The notes under the pieces: model-generated | What the model was told of the DNA's origin: nothing | Database searches by the model: none | Seen by the model: the letters and a program-made list of their open reading frames with translations, nothing else | Shown: piece by piece, positions 37,316 to 47,860 of the stretch | How positions within the stretch are numbered: position 1 is the stretch's first letter | How the letters are laid out: the number at the start of each line of letters is the position of its first letter | Assembly (NCBI RefSeq): GCF_000559085.1 | Contig: NZ_JALN02000001.1 | Location: forward strand, 4,588,001-4,652,000 | Direction: 5' to 3' | DNA: 64,000 bases | Source: Mycolicibacterium aromaticivorans JS19b1 = JCM 16368 | GTDB taxonomy: Bacteria; Actinomycetota; Actinomycetes; Mycobacteriales; Mycobacteriaceae | Made by a program: the position numbers and the translations under genes

Positions 37316-40204
37316 TCAGGGCGAGCTGCCGGGCGCGTTCGCGTCCGCGGGCCGCCGTTCCGCCGCCTCCTGCGGCGTCGGCCACGACTCCGGCAGAGGG
37401 CGCTGACGCACCCGCTGCGGCCACCAGAACCACCGGCCCAGCAGAGCCGCGATCGACGGCGTCATGAACGACCGAATCACCAGGGTGTCGAACAGCAGGC
37501 CCAAGGCGATCGTCGTGCCCACCTGGCCGCCGACCCGAAGGGGACTGACCGCCATCGAGGCCATCGTGAAGGCGAAGACCAGGCCGGCCGACGTCACCAC
37601 CGATCCACTGCCGCCCATCGCCCGGATGATGCCGGTGTTGAGCCCGGCGTGGATCTCTTCCTTGAACCGGGCGACCAGGAGCAGGTTGTAGTCCGATCCG
37701 ACCGCCAACAGGATGATCACCGCCATCGCGATGACCAGCCAGTGCAACGGCTGGCCCAGAATGTGTTGCCACAGTAGGACTGACAGCCCGAACGACGCAC
37801 CGAGCGACAGCACCACCGTGCCGACGATCACCGCCGCCGCCACGACGCTTCGGGTGATCACCAACATGATGATGAAGATCAGACACAGCGCCGCGATACC
37901 GGCGATCATGAGGTCGTAGTTCGCGCCCTCCTGCATGTCCTTGTAAACCGACGCCGTGCCGCCGAGATAGACCCTTGAGCCCTCCAGCGGGGTGCCCTTT
38001 ATTGCTTCGAAAGCGGCGTTCTTGATCTTGTCGATGTGTGAGATGCCTTCCGGCGTCGCGGGATCTCCTTCGTGGGAGATGATGAACCGCACCGCTTTTC
38101 CGTCCGGCGAGACGAACATCTTCAGGCCGCGCTTGAACTCCGGGTTGTCGAACACCTCGGGCGGCAGATAGAAGGAGTCGTCGTTCTTCGATGCGTCGTA
38201 CGCCTGCCCCAATGCCGTGGCATTCTGCTGCATGGCGTCCATCTGATCCTGCAGCCCACCCATTGTCGACTGCATGGTCAGCATCGTGGTCTTCATGGTC
38301 TTCATGGTCGCGATCATCGGCGGCATGACCTCGAGCATCTTGGGCATCAAGACGTCGAGCTTGTCCATGTCGACCACCAGTGCCCCGAGATCGTCACTGA
38401 GCGTGTCGATTCCGTCGAGCGAGTCGAAAATCGATCGCATCGACCAGCACAGCGGGATGTCGAAGCAGTGCGGCTCCCAATAGAGGTAATTGCGGATGGG
38501 CCGGAAGAAGTCGTCGAAATCGGAGATGTTGTCCCGGATCTCGTTGGTGTCGGCCACCATCTGCTTGGTCTTGCCCACCATGCTGTGGGTGATCCCGACC
38601 ATCTCCTTGGTCAGCGCCAGCATGCGCTCCATGGTGTCGATGGTGACCTGTAGCTCGTCACCCATCTTCAGCATGTCCTTCATGCGGTCCTGCAGATAGG
38701 ACATGTTCATCGTCTGGTTGGTGCCCTGCATGCTGATGATGAACGGGATCGAGGTGTGCTCGATCGGGGTGCCGAGCGGACGCGTGATCGTCTGCACCCG
38801 ACCGATGCCCGGAATGTGGAAGACGGTCTTGGCAATTCGGTCGATGACGAGCATGTCGGCCGGGTTGCGCACATCGTGGTCGGTTTCGATCAGCAGGAGC
38901 TCGGGATTCATTCGGGCCTGCGGGAAGTGCCGGTCGGCGGCTGCGTAACCCTGGTTGGCGGGGATGCTGCCGGGCAGGTAGTAGCGATCGTTGTAATTGG
39001 TCTTGTATGACGGAAGTGCCAGCAGCCCGATCAGCGACAGCGCGATCGAGGCGACCAGGATCGGTCCGGGCCAGCGGACCACCGCGGCGCCGACTCGTCG
39101 CCAGGTGCGGGTGTTCATCTTCCGCTTGGGCTCGAACAGGCCGAACCGGCCGCCGATCGAGATGACGGCCGCGCCGAGGGTCAGCGCCGCGATGACGACG
39201 ACGAGCATGCCGATGGCCAGCGGGAAGCCCAGCGATTGAAAGTACGGAAGCCGGGTGAAGTGCAGGCAGAATGTCGCGCCGGCGATGGTCAAGCCCGAGC
39301 CCAGGATCACGTGCGACGTGCCGTGATACATGGAGTAGAAGGCCGTCTCGCGGTCCTCACCGGCCAGTCTCGCCTCGTGATAACGGCCGATCAGGAATAT
39401 CGCGTAGTCGGTCGCGGCGGCGATGGCCAGGGTGGCGAGCAGGTTCACCGCGAACGTCGACAGGCCGATGAGTTCGTGGTGGCCGAGGAAGGCGATGACC
39501 CCCCTGGCCGCGGTGAGCTCGGTGAACACCATGACGAGCACGAGGATCACCGTCGTGATAGATCGGTAGACCAACAGCAGCATCACGAAGATGACGCCGA
39601 TCGTGATGGCCTCGATCAGCTTGACCGCCGAGTCGCCCGCGTTGTGTTGGTCGTGGCTCAGCGCGGTCGGTCCGGTGACGTAGACCTTTATCCCAGCGGG
39701 CGGGGGATTGTCGTTGACGATCTTGGTGACCGCGTCGATCGACTCGTTGGCCAGGGCCTCGCCTTGGTTGCCGGCCAGGTAAAGCTGGACGTAGGCGGCT
39801 TTGCCGTCCGCGCTCTGGGATCCGGCAGCGGTCAGCGGATCGCCCCAGAAGTCCTGGATGTGCTCGACGTGCTTGGTGTCCGCGCGCAGCTTCTGCATCA
39901 AGCCGTCGTAGTAGTGGTGCGCCTCGGGGCCCAGCTGGTGATCGCTTTCGAGCAGCACCATCGCACTGCTGTTGGAGTCGAACTCCTGAAAGTCCTTGCC
40001 GACCTTCTTCATCGCCTTCATGGACGGCGCGTCGTCGGGAGCCAGCGAGACCGTGTGCTCCTGGCTCACCTGTTCCAGCGACGGAACCGCGACACTGAGG
40101 ACGACGACCAGGCCCAGCCACAGCAGGACGATCGGCACCGAGAACGCCCGGACGAACCGGGGGATCAATGGATTCTTCTTGGGCGGGGTCTGCAGGTCGA
40201 TCAT
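37316..40204 (-). CDS. mmpL: MmpL-family RND transporter paired with MmpS
   Basis: A 962-aa RND permease. Proton-relay Asp-Tyr pairs appear in [16 protein letters not shown] and [16 protein letters not shown]. The second loop is Met-rich with [12 protein letters not shown] as in MmpL4/MmpL5. ATG 40204 ([10 protein letters not shown]) overlaps the mmpS stop (ATGA), so the longer frame is not used. With MmpS it probably exports siderophores or lipids (known for MmpL4/5 with MmpS4/5); the substrate here is inferred only. Close paralogue of the gene at 26261-29122. Confidence 0.92.
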
Positions 40205-40632
40205 GCGGACTTCACCAGGCAGAAGGTCTGGGCATTGACACCGGTCGAGGTCTTCTCGTCCTTGAGCACGCCGTCGACGAGGATGCGGCACCCGATCGTG
40301 TCGGTGTCGCCCTGGGCGACGATGTTGGCGCTGGCAGCCGGGGCGGTCGTGGTGAGCGTCAATGACCAGGGCAGCGCGATGTCACGGGCGATCTGCGGTT
40401 GCGCGTCCAGGTCGAGATAGTTGATGGTTGCCACAGCGCCTTCGGGGCCAAAGATCTGATAGGTCACTTGCTTGGGGTTGAACGGCTTGGTGTCGTTGGC
40501 CAGGCCGCTGCCGGGACGGGTGAGCTCGGTCTTTCCGAAGACACCGTGCAAGCGGAAGACGCCGAACGTGGCGATGGCGACCACAACCACGATGAGCAGC
40601 GGTATCCACGCCCGCCTCAGTGCCTTGACCAT
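40201..40632 (-). CDS. mmpS: MmpS-family membrane partner protein
   Basis: A 143-aa protein with one N-terminal transmembrane helix ([19 protein letters not shown]) and an extracytoplasmic domain. That domain contains [30 protein letters not shown] and a final cysteine, the MmpS beta-sandwich with a conserved disulfide. It acts with MmpL in export. The ATG at 40632 is about 120 bp downstream of twin 13-bp direct repeats that look like an operator. Confidence 0.9.
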
Positions 40633-41315: not shown

Positions 41316-41771
41316 ATGGCAGGCCCCGTCGACCGGGTCGTCGCACAGGACGTGCCCGGCGCACCCGACGCGGTGCGCGCCCACTACGTCGATCTGAACA
41401 ACGTCAAAGACGTGCACCCCCTGGTGGTATCGGTCGAAACGCTGTCGCACACGGTCACCGACGACGGCTACGTCCACGTCTATCGGGTTCGTGACCGCAT
41501 CCCGCTCGGCATCGCGACCCTTCCGATCACCTACACGGCCCGACTCGAGGTGCCCGAGTCCGGTCCGGTTCGCACCGAGGCCCGCCAGTTCCCGGCCGTT
41601 CGGCTGGACTCGGTGGTGTCCTTCGATCCGATACCCATCGGCACCCGGCTGACCGAACGCATCCGGTTCACCGCGCCGTGGCCGCTGCTCGGTATCACCG
41701 TGCGGCAGGCAGTTGACGCCCACGAGGAGATGCTGGCCGGCATTCGCCGCCACTTCGAGGCCTCGGGTTAG
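41316..41771 (+). CDS. SRPBCC-family protein
   Basis: A 151-aa protein with the polyketide-cyclase/START-like pattern: PDAVRAHYVDLNNVKDVHPLVV at the first helix, beta strands, and a C-terminal helix AVDAHEEMLAGIRRHFEA. It may bind a lipid or polyketide; nothing more specific is seen. It starts 10 nt after the DUF732 gene and is probably cotranscribed. Its stop interlocks with that of the convergent SDR gene (TTAG). Confidence 0.7.
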   Translation: MAGPVDRVVAQDVPGAPDAVRAHYVDLNNVKDVHPLVVSVETLSHTVTDDGYVHVYRVRDRIPLGIATLPITYTARLEVPESGPVRTEARQFPAVRLDSVVSFDPIPIGTRLTERIRFTAPWPLLGITVRQAVDAHEEMLAGIRRHFEASG

Positions 41772-42508
41772 CCCGCCGTCTTGCCGTTGTCGACGTTGTA
41801 GACCGCGCCGTGGATGGTCGTCGCATCGTCGCTCGCCAGGAACGCGATCACCTTCGCCACATCGGCGGGCGCCATCATCCCGCGGGGCGCGGCGATGCGC
41901 ATGATCAGATCCCAGTCCGCATCCTCGGGGGTCTTGAACTCGGTCACCTGAGGGGTGAGCATGCCGCCCGGGCAGATGACGTTCACCCGCAGCTGTTCTT
42001 TGGTGTATTCGATCGCCAAGGCCTTCGTCATTCCGACCAGCCCGTGCTTGGCTGCGCAGTAGGCGGCTGAATACACCTCACCCTCGATGCCGGCGATCGA
42101 GGCGACGTTGACGATGTTGCCGCCCACCTCCAGCAGCTTCGGCAGCGCCGCGCGGGTCAGATAGAACGGGCCGTTCAGGTTGACGGCGAGGTCGTAATCC
42201 CAGTCCTCGTCGGTGACCGACGTGGTGCGCCGCATCTGGTGAAAGCCCGCCGCGTTCACCAGCACGTCGAGCCTGCCGAAGCGGTCGACGCACTGCGCCA
42301 CCGCGTCCTGACAGGCCTGTGCGCTGGTGATGTCGACCGACGAATATGCGCCGCCGGGAACGGATTCGAACACCGTCGCCATCCGCTCGGCGTCGCGGGC
42401 GATGCCGAATACCGACGCTCCTCGCTCAGCGAATACCTGCGCCGTCGCGGCCCCGAGGCCCGACGACGCCCCGGTCACCAGAGCGACCTTCCCGTCCAGC
42501 TGTGTCAT
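41768..42508 (-). CDS. Short-chain dehydrogenase/reductase
   Basis: A 246-aa classical SDR: cofactor motif TGASSGLG near residue 14, catalytic Y-x-x-x-K in AYCAAKHG, NAAG, and a glycine-rich C-terminus. It probably oxidises or reduces a small alcohol or ketone with NAD(P); the substrate is unknown. It starts 15 nt after the Cys-X-X repeat gene and may be the last gene of that ABC transporter operon. Confidence 0.87.
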   Translation of the reverse strand: MTQLDGKVALVTGASSGLGAATAQVFAERGASVFGIARDAERMATVFESVPGGAYSSVDITSAQACQDAVAQCVDRFGRLDVLVNAAGFHQMRRTTSVTDEDWDYDLAVNLNGPFYLTRAALPKLLEVGGNIVNVASIAGIEGEVYSAAYCAAKHGLVGMTKALAIEYTKEQLRVNVICPGGMLTPQVTEFKTPEDADWDLIMRIAAPRGMMAPADVAKVIAFLASDDATTIHGAVYNVDNGKTAG

Positions 42509-42523
42509 AACCCGACCCTTCGC

Positions 42524-42937
42524 TCAAGCGTGTACGTCGCGAAGTCCCTTCGCGTTGCGTAGTCCCGAGCAGTTGTAGCACCCAACGCAGCCAACGCAGT
42601 CGGTGCATCTCACACAGCCGACGCAGGCGGTGCAACCACGGCATGCCACGCAGGCCAGGCACGCCACGCAGGTGCGCAGCCGCACCGAGAAAACAGAGAG
42701 CACGCTGCCGGCGATGAGCGCGCTACCGGAGGTGGCCACCGAGCCGACAACGAGGGCGCTCCCTGCGGTGGCGATGGATCCGACGACGGCGGCGCTGCCC
42801 GCGGTCGCCATCGAGGCGTTGATCGCCGCACTGCCCACGGTGGCGATGGACCCGGCGACGACCGCGCTGCTGATGGTGCTGACCGAGCCGGCCACGGTGG
42901 CCGCCTCGGAGGGTTCTGTGACGGCAAGTGTTTTCAC
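42524..42937 (-). CDS. Hexad-repeat and Cys-X-X-ladder protein, unknown function
   Basis: 137 aa with two repeat zones and no recognised family. Residues 17-82 form eleven six-residue repeats, mostly G-S-x-x-x-x (GSIATA, GSALVV, GSVATS, GSALIA), giving a 12-residue superperiod. Residues 90-125 are twelve consecutive Cys-X-X triplets (Cys 90, 93, 96 ... 123) without a break. The C-terminus then reads LRNAKGLRDVHA. The start is probably GTG 42937 (VKTLAVTEP). It lies 12 bp after the ABC ATPase gene and 15 bp before the SDR, so it is an operon member. A beta-solenoid with a cysteine ladder, a metal store, or a modified peptide are all conceivable. Confidence 0.72.
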   Translation of the reverse strand: MKTLAVTEPSEAATVAGSVSTISSAVVAGSIATVGSAAINASMATAGSAAVVGSIATAGSALVVGSVATSGSALIAGSVLSVFSVRLRTCVACLACVACRGCTACVGCVRCTDCVGCVGCYNCSGLRNAKGLRDVHA

Positions 42938-42949
42938 GCCGCGAGCATG

Positions 42950-44542
42950 TCAGCCCGCGCGCGGTCGTGCTGGCGGTACGGCCGCCAGCAGCGCCCGGGT
43001 GTACTCCTGCTCGGGCGCAGCGAGCAGGTCGGCGGCGGGTCGGTATTCGACGGTGGAGCCACCACGCAGCACCAGCACGTCGTGGCTCATCCGTTCCACG
43101 ACCGCCAGGTCGTGAGAGATGAAAAGGTAGGTCAGGCCGAGGTCGCGCTGCAGGTCGGCGAGCAGATCCAGCACCCGGGACTGGACCGAGACGTCGAGGG
43201 ATGCCGTCGCCTCGTCGAGGATGACCAGTTCCGGTTCGGCCGCGAGCGCCCGGGCGATACTGACCCGCTGCCGCTGGCCCCCGGATAGCTCATGCGGATA
43301 GCGCGACGCGAACTCTCCCGGTAGGCCGACCAGCTCCAGCAGTTCGGCCACCCGCTCGGCGCGGGCGTGTTTGCCGCGCCGAATGCCATGCACGGCAAGG
43401 GGTTCGGCGATCGCCGAGCCGATGCGGGCGCGTCCGTCGAGCGCCGCGAACGGGTCCTGCAGCACCAGGCTGATCCGGCGGCGGAGCGACTTCTCGTCGG
43501 TCCCGCGCACCCTGAGAATGTCTACTCCGTCCAGCGTCGCCGTGCCCGAGGTGGGGGTGACCAGTCCGGTCAACGCCCCGGCCACCGTCGACTTGCCGGA
43601 CCCGGATTCGCCGACCAGGCCCAGGGTGGTGCCGCGCCGGATCTGGAACGAGACGTCCTCGACGGCCGTGATCTCGCCGAATCCCACGTGGAGTTTGTCG
43701 ACGTCCAGCAGGACGGCGGCATCGGCGGGCGCCGGCGGCGGCCCACCGGCACCGATCACCGGTCGCGCGTCGAGCAGTTCACGGGTGTAGGCATGGCTTG
43801 GTGAGTCGAAGATGCCCAGGATCGGCGCCTGTTCCACCGACACCCCGTCCTGCAGCACCGCGACGGTATCGGCGACCTGCCCGACGAGGCCCAGATCGTG
43901 GCTGATCCATACCACCGCGGCGCCGAAATCGCGTTGCAAATCCTTGATCAGGGTGACGATCTGCGCCTGTGTAGTCACGTCCAGGGCGGTGGTTGGCTCG
44001 TCGGCGACCAGGAGTTCGGGGTCGCAGGCCAGCGCGATCGCCACCATGACTCGCTGCCGCTGACCGCCCGAGAGCTGATGCGGGTAACTGTCCAGGCGAC
44101 GGTCCGCCTCGGGAAGCCCGACGGCTTCCAGCAGCTCGAGCGCACGCTGCCGGGCGCTGCGCCGGGTCAGGTTCTTGTGTGCTTGAAGGGATTCGGTGAT
44201 CTGACGCTCCAGCGTCAGCAGCGGATTGAGTGACGTTCCGGGGTCCTGGAACACGAAGCCGATACGGCCGCCGTGCACGCTGCGCAGAACTCGAGGTTTC
44301 GCACCCACCAGCTGGGTCGCGTGCGAATCATCGCTGGCCGCAAGCTGACTCGAGCCGGTCGTAACCGCGCCCGGGGTGTCGAGCAAACCGGTGGCCGCCA
44401 GTGCGGTCATCGTTTTACCGGAGCCGGATTCGCCGACAATCCCCAACGTCTGCTCGGGCTCGACGTCGAATGAGATGCCCCGCACGATCTCCCGGCGGCC
44501 GAGTCGCACCCGCAGATCGCGCACACTGAGCACGGGAGTCAT
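42950..44542 (-). CDS. Oligopeptide-type ABC transporter, fused double ATPase
   Basis: A 530-aa protein joining DppD-like and DppF-like ATPases. Walker A motifs are GESGSGKTM and GESGSGKST; LSGGQRQR occurs twice, followed by VADEPTTALD and ILDEATASLD. It powers the import system with the two permeases and binding protein upstream. ATG 44542 overlaps the upstream permease stop (ATGA); the longer frame is not coding. The substrate may be peptides, nickel or other metal chelates. Confidence 0.92.
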   Translation of the reverse strand: MTPVLSVRDLRVRLGRREIVRGISFDVEPEQTLGIVGESGSGKTMTALAATGLLDTPGAVTTGSSQLAASDDSHATQLVGAKPRVLRSVHGGRIGFVFQDPGTSLNPLLTLERQITESLQAHKNLTRRSARQRALELLEAVGLPEADRRLDSYPHQLSGGQRQRVMVAIALACDPELLVADEPTTALDVTTQAQIVTLIKDLQRDFGAAVVWISHDLGLVGQVADTVAVLQDGVSVEQAPILGIFDSPSHAYTRELLDARPVIGAGGPPPAPADAAVLLDVDKLHVGFGEITAVEDVSFQIRRGTTLGLVGESGSGKSTVAGALTGLVTPTSGTATLDGVDILRVRGTDEKSLRRRISLVLQDPFAALDGRARIGSAIAEPLAVHGIRRGKHARAERVAELLELVGLPGEFASRYPHELSGGQRQRVSIARALAAEPELVILDEATASLDVSVQSRVLDLLADLQRDLGLTYLFISHDLAVVERMSHDVLVLRGGSTVEYRPAADLLAAPEQEYTRALLAAVPPARPRAG

Positions 44543-45396
44543 GAGCCCCGCCCGGCTTCGGTTGACGTGCGCTGCTTGGGATCCAGGACATCGCGGAGCC
44601 CGTCGCCCAGCAGGTTGAACGCCAGCACGATCACGAAGATCGCCGCGCCGGGGAACACCGCCACCCACCATGCCAGCGTGACGAACCCCTGCGAGTCGAA
44701 GATCATCCGGCCCAGGCATGGCTGCGGCGGTTGCAGTCCGAGCCCGAGAAACGACAGGGCAGCCTCGGAGAGGATCGCGAACGCCAGCGACAGCGACGTC
44801 TGCACGATCAGCGGCCCGGCGATGTTGGGAAGTATGTGGCGAGCCAGGATGTAGCGGTGCGGGCTGCCCATCGAACGTGACACCGCCACATACGGTTCGA
44901 CTCGCACGCCCAGGGTGCTGGCCCGGGCAACCCGGGCGAAGATCGGCGTATAGACAACGCCGATGGCCAGCACGGTCGTGGTCAGCCCCGGACCGAGGAC
45001 GGCGACGATGGCCAAGGCCAGCAACAGAACCGGGAACGCGAACATCACGTCGACGCATCTCATCAACACCGTGTCCGCCCAGCCGCCCCGGTAGCCGGCG
45101 AGCAAGCCGACACCCACGCCGACGACGAGAGCGAATGCGACGCTGACGACCGCGACCTCCAGTGACGCCCGGGTCGCGACCAGCACCCGGGAGGCGATGT
45201 CGCGGCCGAGTTCGTCGGTGCCGAACCAGTGTGCGCCGCCAGGAGCCTGCAGAGCATTCGGCACATCGACATCGTTGACACCCGACGGAGCAAGCCACGG
45301 TGCACCGAGTGCCGCGACCATGATGGCCAGCAGCAGTATCGCACTGACCAAGGCAACCGGATTGCCAAGCAGCAAGCGCCAATTCGATACTCTCAT
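44539..45396 (-). CDS. Peptide/nickel-type ABC permease (DppC-like)
   Basis: A 285-aa membrane protein: HWFGTDELGRDIASRVLVATR near the N-terminus, the DppC hallmark, and an EAA loop AVSRSMGSPHRYILARHILPN. ATG 45396 overlaps the upstream permease stop. It forms the pore with the neighbouring DppB-like permease. Confidence 0.92.
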   Translation of the reverse strand: MRVSNWRLLLGNPVALVSAILLLAIMVAALGAPWLAPSGVNDVDVPNALQAPGGAHWFGTDELGRDIASRVLVATRASLEVAVVSVAFALVVGVGVGLLAGYRGGWADTVLMRCVDVMFAFPVLLLALAIVAVLGPGLTTTVLAIGVVYTPIFARVARASTLGVRVEPYVAVSRSMGSPHRYILARHILPNIAGPLIVQTSLSLAFAILSEAALSFLGLGLQPPQPCLGRMIFDSQGFVTLAWWVAVFPGAAIFVIVLAFNLLGDGLRDVLDPKQRTSTEAGRGS

Positions 45397-46337
45397 GACA
45401 GCCGGATCCGTGGATCGACCACCGCGTACAGCACGTCGACGATCAGGTTGATCAGCAGGAACAGCGCGGCGATCAGCAGCACCGCACCCTGGATCACCGG
45501 ATAGTCGCGGGCGGCTACCGCGTTGAAGGTCAGCCGCCCCAACCCCGGCCACGCGAAGACCACCTCGACGACGATCACCCCGCCGAGGATGGTCGCCAGC
45601 TGGATACCGGTGATGGTCAGCACCGGAACCAGCGCGTTGCGCACGATGTGCCGTGACGTGATCACCATAGGTGCAAGTCCCTTGGACCGGGCGGTGCGCA
45701 CGTAGCCGGCCTCGGCGACTTCCAGCACCGCGGACCGGACATATCGGGTCATGATCGCTCCGGCCACCAATCCGACCGTGAGGCCGGGCAATACGATGTG
45801 TCGCAGCCACCCGCCAGGGTCCTGCAACAGCGGCCGGTACCCGGATGTGGGCAACCAGCCCAGTGTCGAGGCGAATAGGCCGATCAGCAGGATCGCCATC
45901 CAGAAGTCTGGGATCGAGACACCGAATTGGCTTGCCACGCGGACGATTCCGTCACCTGGTCGGCCGCGGTGCAGAGCCGAATAGATGCCCGCGGGCAGCG
46001 CGATCAGGAGAGCGATCACGATGCCGACCAGCGCAAGGGACATTGTGGCGGGCAGCCGCTCGAGCAGTGTTGCGGTCACCGGTTCGCCGTTGCGGAAGCT
46101 GACCCCGAGATCACCTGTCAGCGCCGCGCCGGCGTAGGAGAAGAACTGTGCGACCAGCGGGCGATCGAGACCGCTGGCCGACCGCAGGGCTTGGTAGGCC
46201 TCCGGTGTGTACCGGGTGCCCAATGCGATGCGCACCGGGTCGCCGGGCACCAGGTGCAGCAGCGCGAACACCACGACAAGCACACCGAACATCACCACAG
46301 CCGAATACAGCAGCCGGCGCAGAAGGAACGCGATCAC
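45393..46337 (-). CDS. Peptide/nickel-type ABC permease (DppB-like)
   Basis: A 314-aa permease of the DppB type: LLRRLLYSAVVMFGVLVVVFALLHLVPGDPV at its N-terminus (described by its HLVPGDP motif) and the EAA loop YVRTARSKGLAPMVITSRHIVRNA. Start GTG 46337 overlaps the binding-protein stop. It has six helices. Confidence 0.92.
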   Translation of the reverse strand: MIAFLLRRLLYSAVVMFGVLVVVFALLHLVPGDPVRIALGTRYTPEAYQALRSASGLDRPLVAQFFSYAGAALTGDLGVSFRNGEPVTATLLERLPATMSLALVGIVIALLIALPAGIYSALHRGRPGDGIVRVASQFGVSIPDFWMAILLIGLFASTLGWLPTSGYRPLLQDPGGWLRHIVLPGLTVGLVAGAIMTRYVRSAVLEVAEAGYVRTARSKGLAPMVITSRHIVRNALVPVLTITGIQLATILGGVIVVEVVFAWPGLGRLTFNAVAARDYPVIQGAVLLIAALFLLINLIVDVLYAVVDPRIRLS

Positions 46338-47860
46338 GCCGCACCACCTCTCGTCAGGTGGGCTGAGCGAAACCTCACGGCCCCGTCGCGTCGGGCGTCA
46401 TATCCGGCCAGGCTGGTCGACCACGCCTGAATGACCGAGGGGTTGTAGAGGTAGATATAACTGGCCTTGTCGGCGATGATCGTCGCGGCCCGGGCGTACT
46501 CGTCGTGGCGACGCGCACGGTCGGTCTCCTCGCGCGCGGCGTCCAGCAGTCGGTCGACAACCGGGTCGGAGAATTTCTGCGCGTTGCTCGAGCCGCCGGT
46601 GTGGTGCTGGGCGTAGTAGAAGTCGTCGGGATCGATGTTGCCGAGCCACCCCATCATCAGCATGTCGAAGTGGCCGCTGTTCTGTTCGTCGAGCCAGGTC
46701 GCGAAGTCGACGGTGCGAATGCTGACGTCGATGCCTATCCCGGCAAGGTTGTCGGCGATGATCTGCGCCGCGGTGACCGTCTCCGGGTACTCGCTGGTCA
46801 CCAGCATGTCCAACTTCTGGTTGCCGACCCCGGCCTGCCGGAGAAGATCGCGGGCGCGGCCCTCGTCGTGGCGGTAGCGGTCGTACGGGGTGTACCACGG
46901 GTTACCTTGGGGAATAGCAAGCTGATTCGCGGTCGCGGTCCCGTAGCTGGTGGCTTGCACGATCGACGCCCGGTCGATGCCGTAGGCGATGGCTTGCCGT
47001 ACCCGTTCGTCATTCCACGGTGCGCGTGCCTCGTTGAGCGCCAGGTACCAGTAGTCGTTGGACGGGGTGACGGCCAGGTGGATCGAGTCGTCGCCCTTCA
47101 ACTGCTCGACACGCTGCGGCGGAATGGCGTCGGTCCAGTCGATCTCACCGGCTTGGAGTGCCGATAACGCCGTCGACGGTTCGGAGATGAACCGGAACGT
47201 CACACCCGGAACTTTCGGGGCGCCTCCCCAGTAGCTTTTGTTCGCGGTCAGGGTGATCGAGTCGCCGCTCTTGCGTCCGGTGAAGGCGAACGGTCCGGTG
47301 CCCACCGGATGCGTTGCGATCTGGCCGCTTTCGACGTTGCGACGCTGCACGATCGCCATCCCTTTGAAGCCGCCGAGATTCGTCAGCAGGTTCGGGGTGG
47401 GGTGTCGTACGTCGATGACGACGGTCTGCGGATCCGGTGCGCGCACGTCGCGAACGGCGCTGAGTTTGTCGACGTTGGCGAGTTTCCCGTCGATGATCCG
47501 CCGGTAGGAGTAGACGACGTCGGTGGCACTGAACGGCGAGCCGTCGTGCCAGCTCACTCCCGGGCGGAGGTGAAAGGTCCAGGTGAGTTGGTCGGGGGAG
47601 ACCTGCCAGGATTCCGCGAGCGCCGGTCGCATCTCGAGGTTCTCGTCGGGCTCGACGAGGGTGTCGAACACGTTCTCCAGCACCTCGAAGGAGAAGTACG
47701 CGGTGCTGCGCTGGGGGTCGAGCTGGTCTGGCTCGCCGGCGATCGCCGCGGTGATGTTGCCCGCCGACGCTCCGCCCAGATCAACCCGCGAACCCGTCGA
47801 ACACGCCGCCAGCAGCCCGATCATTACGAGGGCAGCGGTCAGCACCGCTGGTCTTCTCAT
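46334..47860 (-). CDS. Family 5 extracellular solute-binding lipoprotein
   Basis: A 508-aa binding protein with signal peptide and lipobox LLAAC. The SBP_bac_5 features WTFHLRPGVSWHDGSPFSATDVVYSY, VRQAIAYGIDRASI and a C-terminal LYNPSVI region are clear. It should capture peptides or a metal complex for the permeases downstream in the operon. First gene; ATG 47860. Confidence 0.92.
   Translation of the reverse strand: MRRPAVLTAALVMIGLLAACSTGSRVDLGGASAGNITAAIAGEPDQLDPQRSTAYFSFEVLENVFDTLVEPDENLEMRPALAESWQVSPDQLTWTFHLRPGVSWHDGSPFSATDVVYSYRRIIDGKLANVDKLSAVRDVRAPDPQTVVIDVRHPTPNLLTNLGGFKGMAIVQRRNVESGQIATHPVGTGPFAFTGRKSGDSITLTANKSYWGGAPKVPGVTFRFISEPSTALSALQAGEIDWTDAIPPQRVEQLKGDDSIHLAVTPSNDYWYLALNEARAPWNDERVRQAIAYGIDRASIVQATSYGTATANQLAIPQGNPWYTPYDRYRHDEGRARDLLRQAGVGNQKLDMLVTSEYPETVTAAQIIADNLAGIGIDVSIRTVDFATWLDEQNSGHFDMLMMGWLGNIDPDDFYYAQHHTGGSSNAQKFSDPVVDRLLDAAREETDRARRHDEYARAATIIADKASYIYLYNPSVIQAWSTSLAGYDARRDGAVRFRSAHLTRGGAA

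What the first reader, a model, noticed from the sequence alone, without database searches (positions are those of the whole stretch)
42524..42937. A protein made of hexad repeats followed by twelve unbroken Cys-X-X triplets, inside a peptide/nickel ABC operon
Seen: eleven six-residue repeats of the G-S-x-x-x-x type (residues 17-82), then cysteine at every third residue from 90 to 123, then a short basic end. Both zones share a six-residue rhythm. The frame is the only one with this order; the opposite strand reads a proline/threonine shadow. The gene is locked between an ABC ATPase gene (12 bp away) and an SDR (15 bp away). I know of no described family with this architecture. Inferred possibilities: a small beta-solenoid with a cysteine ladder, a metal or persulfide store loaded by the importer, a redox buffer, or a ribosomally made, modified peptide.
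Basis: partly seen in the sequence, partly recalled or inferred. Interest (0 to 1): 0.82.

Follow-up and report, generated by a model that had tools for sequence, protein, structure and literature searches.

The report
Solenoid-like bacterial protein with cysteine core
A small, uncharacterised protein kept by many mycobacteria appears to wind like a tiny spring, one turn per twelve amino acids, with a core that changes from serines to twelve stacked cysteines, which suggests an undescribed thiol-lined structural, metal-binding or redox protein.

Summary
It belongs to an undescribed actinobacterial family found in 180 of 396 genomes of the genus and in Pseudonocardia and Actinomycetospora. The window protein matches no Pfam or NCBIfam model. 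dN/dS is about 0.18, and 0.06 in the Cys zone. Beetle antifreeze protein has the same inward spacing, but this is not a member of that family. AlphaFold shows a triplet solenoid over the Cys zone only, at moderate confidence. Bare Cys-X-X proteins occur in many phage contigs. An ABC ATPase adjoins 8 of 80 named loci, the SDR 27, so the importer is no general partner. A modified-peptide role is disfavoured (no YcaO). Most likely the last three coils form a 12-thiol core that binds soft metal or caps the fold; that chemistry is inferred.

The parts
42524..42937 (-). gene for the 137-aa Ser/Cys-core solenoid-like protein (GTG start at 42937, stop 42526-42524)
   Evidence: homologues; dN/dS
42692..42889 (-). 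residues 17-82: eleven hexads, which form 12-residue units with every third residue Ser-Val-Ser-Thr
42671..42691 (-). residues 83-89: junction to the Cys run; in other members Ser positions around this boundary are often Cys in the same register
42569..42670 (-). residues 90-123: twelve Cys-X-X triplets, read as three coils of four Cys
   Evidence: AlphaFold block pLDDT 70-77 over residues 91-130
42527..42568 (-). residues 124-137: conserved tail SGLRNAKGLRDVHA, whose register residues are Leu-Ala-Leu-Val (one more coil, probable cap)
41768..42508 (-). short-chain dehydrogenase/reductase; adjoins the family gene in 27 of 80 named loci
42950..44542 (-). two-domain dipeptide/nickel-type ABC ATPase; adjacent in only 8 of 80 named loci
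45393..46337 (-). dipeptide/nickel-type ABC permease
46334..47860 (-). family 5 solute-binding protein

Best explanation
The gene encodes a member of an undescribed actinobacterial protein family that folds as a narrow beta-solenoid of about 12 residues per coil, built from triplets. The first residue of each triplet points into the core, the second makes the beta-bridge to the next coil, and the third (Gly, Ala, Asn, Asp) makes the turn. A variable number of coils (about 2-9, most often 7) have a Ser-Val-Ser-Thr core. Then come three coils whose whole core is Cys, twelve inward thiols in four stacks. A Leu-Ala-Leu-Val coil ends the protein. Shown: a coding gene under purifying selection, one three-residue register with a 12-residue phase through the protein, near-invariance of the twelve Cys, and Ser/Cys exchange at the boundary. 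Supported at moderate confidence: triplet solenoid geometry in the Cys zone. Inferred: the 12-residue coil, the geometry of the hexad zone, cytosolic location (no export signal by eye; no predictor run), and function. I commit to this mechanism: in the reducing cytosol the twelve thiols hold a soft metal (Cu(I) or Zn(II)) in the lumen, and the loaded Cys coils form the constant, redox- or metal-sensitive end of a stalk of variable length.
For: Register: in 99 of 99 anchored members (of 101) no Cys after the start of the run is out of register, and 886 of 902 GS-serines share that register. Ser of VAGS lies at 0 mod 12 from the tail anchor in 340 of 367 cases and Ser of TAGS at 6 mod 12 in 244 of 256 (100 anchored members). 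Register residues run S-V-S-T, then C x12, then L-A-L-V. Twelve is the commonest gap length among close pairs (113 of 334 gaps; pairs are not independent). Cys fills 1188 of 1200 cells, the others being S 4, T 3, L 3, M 1, I 1. Cys replaces Ser near the boundary: 42 of 99 at triplet 14, 20 of 99 at triplet 16. Beetle antifreeze protein has the out-in-out spacing with inner C2, S5, C8, A11 in a right-handed 12-residue coil (passages of PMC8038014); its register string, read after a one-residue shift near its N-terminus, is CCCACSCACSCAC.... AlphaFold: ten-residue blocks over residues 91-130 have mean pLDDT 70-77, and the residue after the Cys register is in a bridge or strand for 12 of 13 triplets of residues 96-135, against 2 of 14 and 1 of 13 for the other two registers; a viral Cys-run protein gives 19 of 19 over residues 21-78. 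Median dN/dS from the Cys run onward is 0.058 (116 pairs).
Against: Mean pLDDT is only 60.0 and pTM 0.45; the hexad zone (blocks 53-58) shows no register pattern in the model (residues 42-60: strand in 3 of 7, 3 of 6, 3 of 6). The viral model has mean pLDDT 52.8 from six sequences. Foldseek against PDB: best E 0.81, none at or below 0.001; the shown hits are by name mostly beta-helices, but neither 1EZG nor 1L1I is among the 50 shown of 88. The viral model's hit to 1L1I has E 4.3. The sequence hit of a viral relative to 1EZG (E 0.0016) carries a 38-bit composition bias, and the window protein has no such hit. PF02420 does not match the gene. Some members reach E 9e-5 with collagen models, another triplet repeat (13 of 61). 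No metal-handling gene was seen to recur beside the family, and nothing here tests metal binding. Rare replacement of single Cys by S, T, M, L or I suits a packing role.
Confidence: 0.45

Rival explanations
1. Same solenoid, but the Cys are structural only: a small, non-polar core residue that packs a very narrow coil, or a disulfide/thiol end cap that stops the solenoid fraying, with no metal or redox function.
For: Cys exchanges with Ser near the boundary in the same register and rarely with S, T, L, M, I inside the run. The Cys coils are constant in number and sit at the C-terminal end while upstream coils vary from about 2 to 9, as expected of a cap. Cys-rich disulfide caps at solenoid ends are described for fungal ice-nucleating proteins (passages of PMC13288671). 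Long Cys runs in phage proteins, which by eye lack export signals (no predictor run), also suit packing.
Against: Cys (1188 of 1200 cells) is kept more strictly than the upstream core positions (the commonest residue has 78 to 95 of up to 99 at triplets 18-32). Disulfides are not expected in a reducing cytosol.
Confidence: 0.32
2. Precursor of a ribosomally made, modified peptide, with the hexads as leader and the Cys-X-X run as core, as in heterocycloanthracin.
For: Repeated Cys-Xaa-Xaa is the hallmark of the B. anthracis/B. cereus precursor family, whose maturation genes can lie far away (PMC2674419, part 1 of 2 read). Five of 23 bearer genomes of the genus have a YcaO, against 0 of 14 non-bearers.
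Against: No YcaO found in the window's genome or in 18 of 23 bearers. TIGR03601 matches only at E 2.6 or worse (19 of 61 members). The inter-Cys residues and the tail are strongly conserved, and the register continues through the 'leader'. Other maturase types were not searched for by family.
Confidence: 0.04
3. A metal or persulfide store loaded by the adjacent ABC importer, working with the SDR.
For: In the window and its close relatives the gene lies within 12-15 bp of both. SDR and family gene are adjacent in 27 of 80 named loci, and both gene orders occur.
Against: The ABC ATPase adjoins only 8 of 80 loci. 21 of 80 sit at SdhB2, 5 at RNase Z, 2 at an acyl-CoA dehydrogenase and 25 at none of the tested genes. 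Context is clade-specific, with 6 changes on a weakly resolved tree.
Confidence: 0.07
4. A zinc-finger-like or ferredoxin-like protein: the CxxC pairs or CxxCxxC sets bind Zn or Fe-S clusters in a globular fold rather than a solenoid lumen.
For: CxxCxxC is a ferredoxin-type spacing (recalled). Weak hits to CXXC zinc fingers (E 0.61 with the profile) and to Fer4_3 (1 of 61 members, E 3.9).
Against: These hits are non-significant. An unbroken 12-Cys run without a spacer or proline is not the Fer4 pattern (recalled). Register residues continue on both sides without Cys.
Confidence: 0.07
5. A low-complexity or non-coding artefact.
For: Repetitive, GC-rich, with long shadow ORFs on the other strand.
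Against: Median dN/dS 0.175 over 120 pairs; no stops in the listed full-length matches; 1188 of 1200 Cys cells kept.
Confidence: 0.01

Closest known systems
Tenebrio/Dorcus beetle antifreeze protein (TmAFP, PDB 1EZG/1L1I, Pfam PF02420)
   Same: 12-residue period; every third residue in one register of small residues (C, S, A there; S, V, T, C here); coil number varies (PMC8038014 passages).
   Different: Core is C-S-C-A per coil with one disulfide, not S-V-S-T and C-C-C-C. The ice-binding TxT face is absent here: the two other positions of hexad triplets are mostly Ala, Val, Ile, Gly (a count with four mis-anchored members). PF02420 does not match. The beetle protein is secreted (passages); no export signal is evident here by eye.
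Phage Cys-X-X run proteins (phrog_15341, unknown function; some annotated 'insect antifreeze protein')
   Same: Unbroken Cys-X-X runs, often with Asp, Gly or Asn at the third place. phrog_15341 matches window residues 88-133 at E 2.9e-7. A viral model shows the same one-bridge-per-triplet pattern.
   Different: No Ser-Val-Ser-Thr coils or GLRxxxGLRxVH tail seen in the frames printed; different N-termini.
Heterocycloanthracin-type precursors (TIGR03601)
   Same: Repeated Cys-Xaa-Xaa.
   Different: Other leader, Gly-rich core, maturation genes in the same genome (PMC2674419, part 1 of 2); not met here.
Fungal ice-nucleating proteins with disulfide-capped solenoid ends
   Same: Repetitive solenoid with Cys concentrated near the ends (passages of PMC13288671).
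   Different: Ice nucleators related to bacterial proteins with 16-residue repeats; Cys only near the ends, not a 12-Cys run.
MfpA and pentapeptide-repeat proteins of mycobacteria
   Same: Mycobacterial beta-solenoids (recalled); 2bm5 appears in the Foldseek list (E 1.2, not significant).
   Different: Five-residue repeat; no Cys run (recalled); no pentapeptide Pfam match here.

Membership tests
Insect antifreeze protein family (PF02420) | 12-residue repeat with small residues at every third position, taken as inward | tested here: met
   against passages; inward direction itself is inferred
Insect antifreeze protein family (PF02420) | match to the Pfam model | tested here: not met
   not among hits of 61 members at E<=10; the two weak G000 places are elsewhere; 0 of 31 genomes over the cut-off
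Insect antifreeze protein family (PF02420) | C2/S5/C8/A11 core and outward TxT ice-binding face | tested here: not met
   core S-V-S-T and C-C-C-C; other positions rarely Thr
Phage Cys-X-X proteins (phrog_15341) | profile match | tested here: met
   E 2.9e-7, residues 88-133 only; the low complexity of the Cys run makes this weaker than the number suggests
Phage Cys-X-X proteins (phrog_15341) | same N-terminal region | tested here: not met
   profile positions 95-140 of 276 only; N-termini differ
Heterocycloanthracin/TOMM precursor | Cys-Xaa-Xaa repeats | tested here: met
Heterocycloanthracin/TOMM precursor | TIGR03601 leader model | tested here: not met
   best E 2.6 in 19 of 61 members
Heterocycloanthracin/TOMM precursor | YcaO-type maturation enzyme in the genome | tested here: not met
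   0 in the window genome; 5 of 23 bearers of the genus
Beta-solenoid proteins (as a fold class) | stacked coils with parallel bridges and inward core ladder | tested here: inconclusive
   supported in residues 96-135; hexad zone low confidence; no significant PDB match
Metallothionein-like metal stores | metal bound through Cys thiolates | not testable with these tools
   needs purified protein

The most novel reading that the evidence does not exclude
Actinobacteria and many phages share an undescribed class of 'thiol-core solenoids', in which Cys at every third residue lines the inside of a 12-residue beta-coil and forms continuous stacks of thiols. The mycobacterial family is a hybrid with a Ser/Val/Thr-core stalk and a constant 12-thiol metal or redox core at its end.
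Probability: 0.25. Interest if true: 0.85.

Novelty: new variant of a known kind. Interest (0 to 1): 0.62.

Why it matters
About 45% of sampled genomes of the genus (180 of 396) keep a gene that matches no model in Pfam or NCBIfam for the window protein, has no assigned function and has a very unusual composition. If the inward-thiol reading is right, it would be a natural protein whose solenoid core changes from Ser/Val/Thr to all-Cys within one continuous coil. It would then be a natural scaffold for metal-thiolate or redox-gated solenoids, and would give a structural reading of Cys-X-X proteins now filed as unknown or 'insect antifreeze protein' in phages. One structure plus a metal analysis would settle most of it.

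Tried and rejected
Pfam, NCBIfam and PDB sequence searches: nothing significant for the window protein. Scanned one by one, other members give weak hits to collagen (13 of 61, best E 9e-5), collagen-like adhesins (10, 5 and 3 of 61, best E 8.5e-5), HxsA4 (19 of 61, E 0.01), FapA, LpxD and MinC; I ascribe these to the repetitive make-up and did not use them. PHROGs also lists phrog_5070 (E 0.0045) and phrog_7964 (E 0.011) on the hexads, not followed. One search was a first register count with about four mis-anchored members; replace it (rows without anchor: L119 and L164, one row; members were made distinct by their last 60 residues, 101 in all). Gap lengths include the variable N-terminus and non-independent pairs. 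dN/dS uses only pairs with dS 0.05-1.5 (4 of 120 pairs dropped for the Cys zone of the first group). Periodicity of viral runs at 12 residues: z 3.6 for 41 runs from 22 loci (15 residues gives z 2.0), modest and inflated by relatedness; the same test on 100 mycobacterial runs is not independent. hhalign of A2 against A3 gave a one-column alignment and was discarded. Outside-genus hits (4 genomes) lack the architecture when read. Of 23 genomes hit, 15 have weak matches (E 7e-8 to 8e-4) that by their ranges lie mainly on the hexads or on bare Cys frames; they were not counted and, L174 apart, not read. tblastn of the window protein: phages none; plasmids 2 weak hits, 36-38% identity, not followed. 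Ice binding was put aside for lack of a Thr face; a membrane-spanning tube, considered because the other triplet positions are apolar, because coil number varies. BFVD: one match with E<=0.001, a giant-virus 'TNFR-Cys' protein (E 7.9e-4, TM 0.42), not followed further. Some of the 48 viral frames (for example in L201, L219, L220, L236) look like other or wrong frames. Literature searches (two searches returned nothing) showed no description of this family in the listings of the held open-access library; five papers were opened (PMC2674419 part 1 of 2; passages of PMC8038014, PMC13123833, PMC13288671, PMC3196904).

Full report
What is there. The gene lies on the minus strand, 42937 to 42524, with a GTG start and 137 codons. 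A DNA pattern of twelve Cys codons in this spacing occurs once in the window and in 0 of 100 shuffles.

It is a conserved protein family. Among the 37 genomes of the same genus (the window's own included), 23 have a match; in the larger sample 180 of 396 do. A scan of genome contigs found 206 relatives in 320 candidate stretches and kept the best 80, mostly titled Mycobacterium or Mycolicibacterium or actinobacterial MAGs, plus four Pseudonocardia and two Actinomycetospora. Two distant members lie in another family of the phylum (E 3.5e-27 and 5.3e-27, L163 and L164). The window protein matches no Pfam or NCBIfam model; some other members reach E 9e-5 with collagen-type models (13 of 61). Median dN/dS is 0.175 in the window's clade (120 pairs of 16 sequences), 0.248 upstream of the Cys run and 0.058 from the Cys run onward (116 pairs); two other groups give 0.227 (15 pairs) and 0.249 (6 pairs) overall. 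The window protein lacks one 12-residue unit present in its nearest relatives (137 against 149 aa).

One register, one phase. Counting back from the Leu of the GLR tail, no Cys after the start of the run is out of register in the 99 anchored members of 101, and 886 of 902 GS-serines fall in the same register. The register residues alternate S-V-S-T over 12 residues through the hexads; Ser of VAGS lies at 0 mod 12 in 340 of 367 cases and Ser of TAGS at 6 mod 12 in 244 of 256 (100 members). The window string ends SVSTSISTSVSTSVSTSISSSL, then twelve C, then LALV. Twelve is also the commonest gap length between close relatives, 113 of 334 gaps in 424 pairs (pairs are not independent). Near the boundary Ser and Cys replace one another: triplet 14 is Ser in 54 and Cys in 42 of 99, triplet 16 is Ser in 75 and Cys in 20. 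The number of upstream coils, counted permissively, varies from 2 to 9 with a mode of 7 (43 of 100), while the Cys coils stay at three; Cys fills 1188 of 1200 cells, the rest being S, T, L, M, I. The third residue of the last Cys triplets is almost always Gly, Asn or Asp (triplets 5 to 1), residues that favour tight turns (general knowledge).

Structure. [quoted passage not shown] Read every third residue from its fourth Cys, the 1EZG sequence printed gives CCCACSCACSCAC..., the same spacing as here; its first three Cys lie one residue out of that register. An internal serine ladder is described for TmAFP and modelled for an ice-nucleation protein (passages of PMC3196904). AlphaFold on 61 sequences gave mean pLDDT 60.0 and pTM 0.45, but block means of 70-77 over residues 91-130. 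Over residues 96-135 the residue after the Cys register is in a bridge or strand in 12 of 13 triplets, against 2 of 14 and 1 of 13 for the other two positions; in a model of a viral Cys-run protein (mean pLDDT 52.8, blocks 67-80 over residues 21-70) it is so in 19 of 19, and that model has two four-residue strands 12 residues apart (35-38, 47-50). The hexad zone was not resolved and shows no register pattern. Foldseek found nothing significant in the PDB (best E 0.81 and 0.23); by name the shown lists are mostly beta-helices and solenoids, and the viral model lists TmAFP (1L1I) at E 4.3. In the viral-protein library one match passes E 0.001, a giant-virus 'TNFR-Cys' protein of 138 aa. So a triplet solenoid is likely in the Cys zone, 12 residues per coil is inferred mainly from sequence, and the hexad half is inferred only.

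Relatives among phages. In loci L181-L264, 48 of 78 frames passed a filter for variety and length, some of them doubtful. In 41 runs from 22 of these loci the third positions are mainly Asp, Gly, Asn. phrog_15341, of unknown function, matches the four viral examples tested and the window protein over residues 88-133 (E 2.9e-7). tblastn with one viral example finds 23 phage records, 17 of Campylobacter phages; three records of two Vibrio phages are annotated 'insect antifreeze protein', and Campylobacter phage CPt10 (two records) carries weak PF02420 annotations. So others met the same resemblance independently. The mycobacterial protein is not a member of PF02420.

What it probably does. The constant part is the Cys coils and the tail; the variable part is the number of Ser coils. 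That is the anatomy of a stalk with a conserved end. I consider a 12-thiol lumen that binds a soft metal most likely, with a purely structural or capping role of the Cys close behind. Against the metal reading: no metal gene was seen to recur nearby and nothing here measures metal. Against pure packing: Cys is kept more strictly than the other core residues. A modified-peptide role is unlikely, because no YcaO was found in the window's genome, only 5 of 23 bearers of the genus have one (though 0 of 14 non-bearers do), and TIGR03601 does not match. Disulfide-capped solenoid ends are known in fungal ice-nucleating proteins (passages of PMC13288671).

Novelty. The fold type has a precedent and Cys-X-X phage proteins are in the databases as unknowns. 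I saw no description of this family in the searches listed under Tried and rejected. I rate it a new variant of a known kind.

Noticed in passing
viral loci L181-L264: A large, apparently undescribed set of phage proteins with unbroken Cys-X-X runs (11 to over 50 triplets), several with a shared N-terminus of the form RWYDENNNSW...EEAT.YSPTLTNC, sometimes several in one contig (for example L182, L195, L223).
   Followed up: partly
H4-H6, Vibrio phage 1.238 records; L305:1429-1803: A phage Cys-run protein is annotated 'insect antifreeze protein' with an InterPro reference; probably a misannotation by repeat similarity.
   Followed up: partly
L115 and L132: Two MAGs titled Bifidobacterium breve carry mycobacterium-like loci with the SDR and this gene; probably misbinned or mislabelled.
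   Followed up: no
L046, L047, L048, L050 against the window: The order of SDR and Cys-run gene is swapped between lineages although both stay behind the same kind of ABC operon.
   Followed up: partly
L091-L105 and similar: In one subfamily the gene follows a second succinate dehydrogenase/fumarate reductase operon (SdhA2, SdhB2); its open frame (not necessarily the gene) overlaps the end of SdhB2 in some loci.
   Followed up: partly
window 37316-40632: An MmpL-family RND transporter with a 143-aa MmpS-sized gene before it lies downstream of the SDR and stays near it in several relatives.
   Followed up: no
genus genomes: All five YcaO-bearing genomes of the genus sample also carry this family (5 of 23 bearers, 0 of 14 non-bearers); the sample is too small to conclude.
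   Followed up: no
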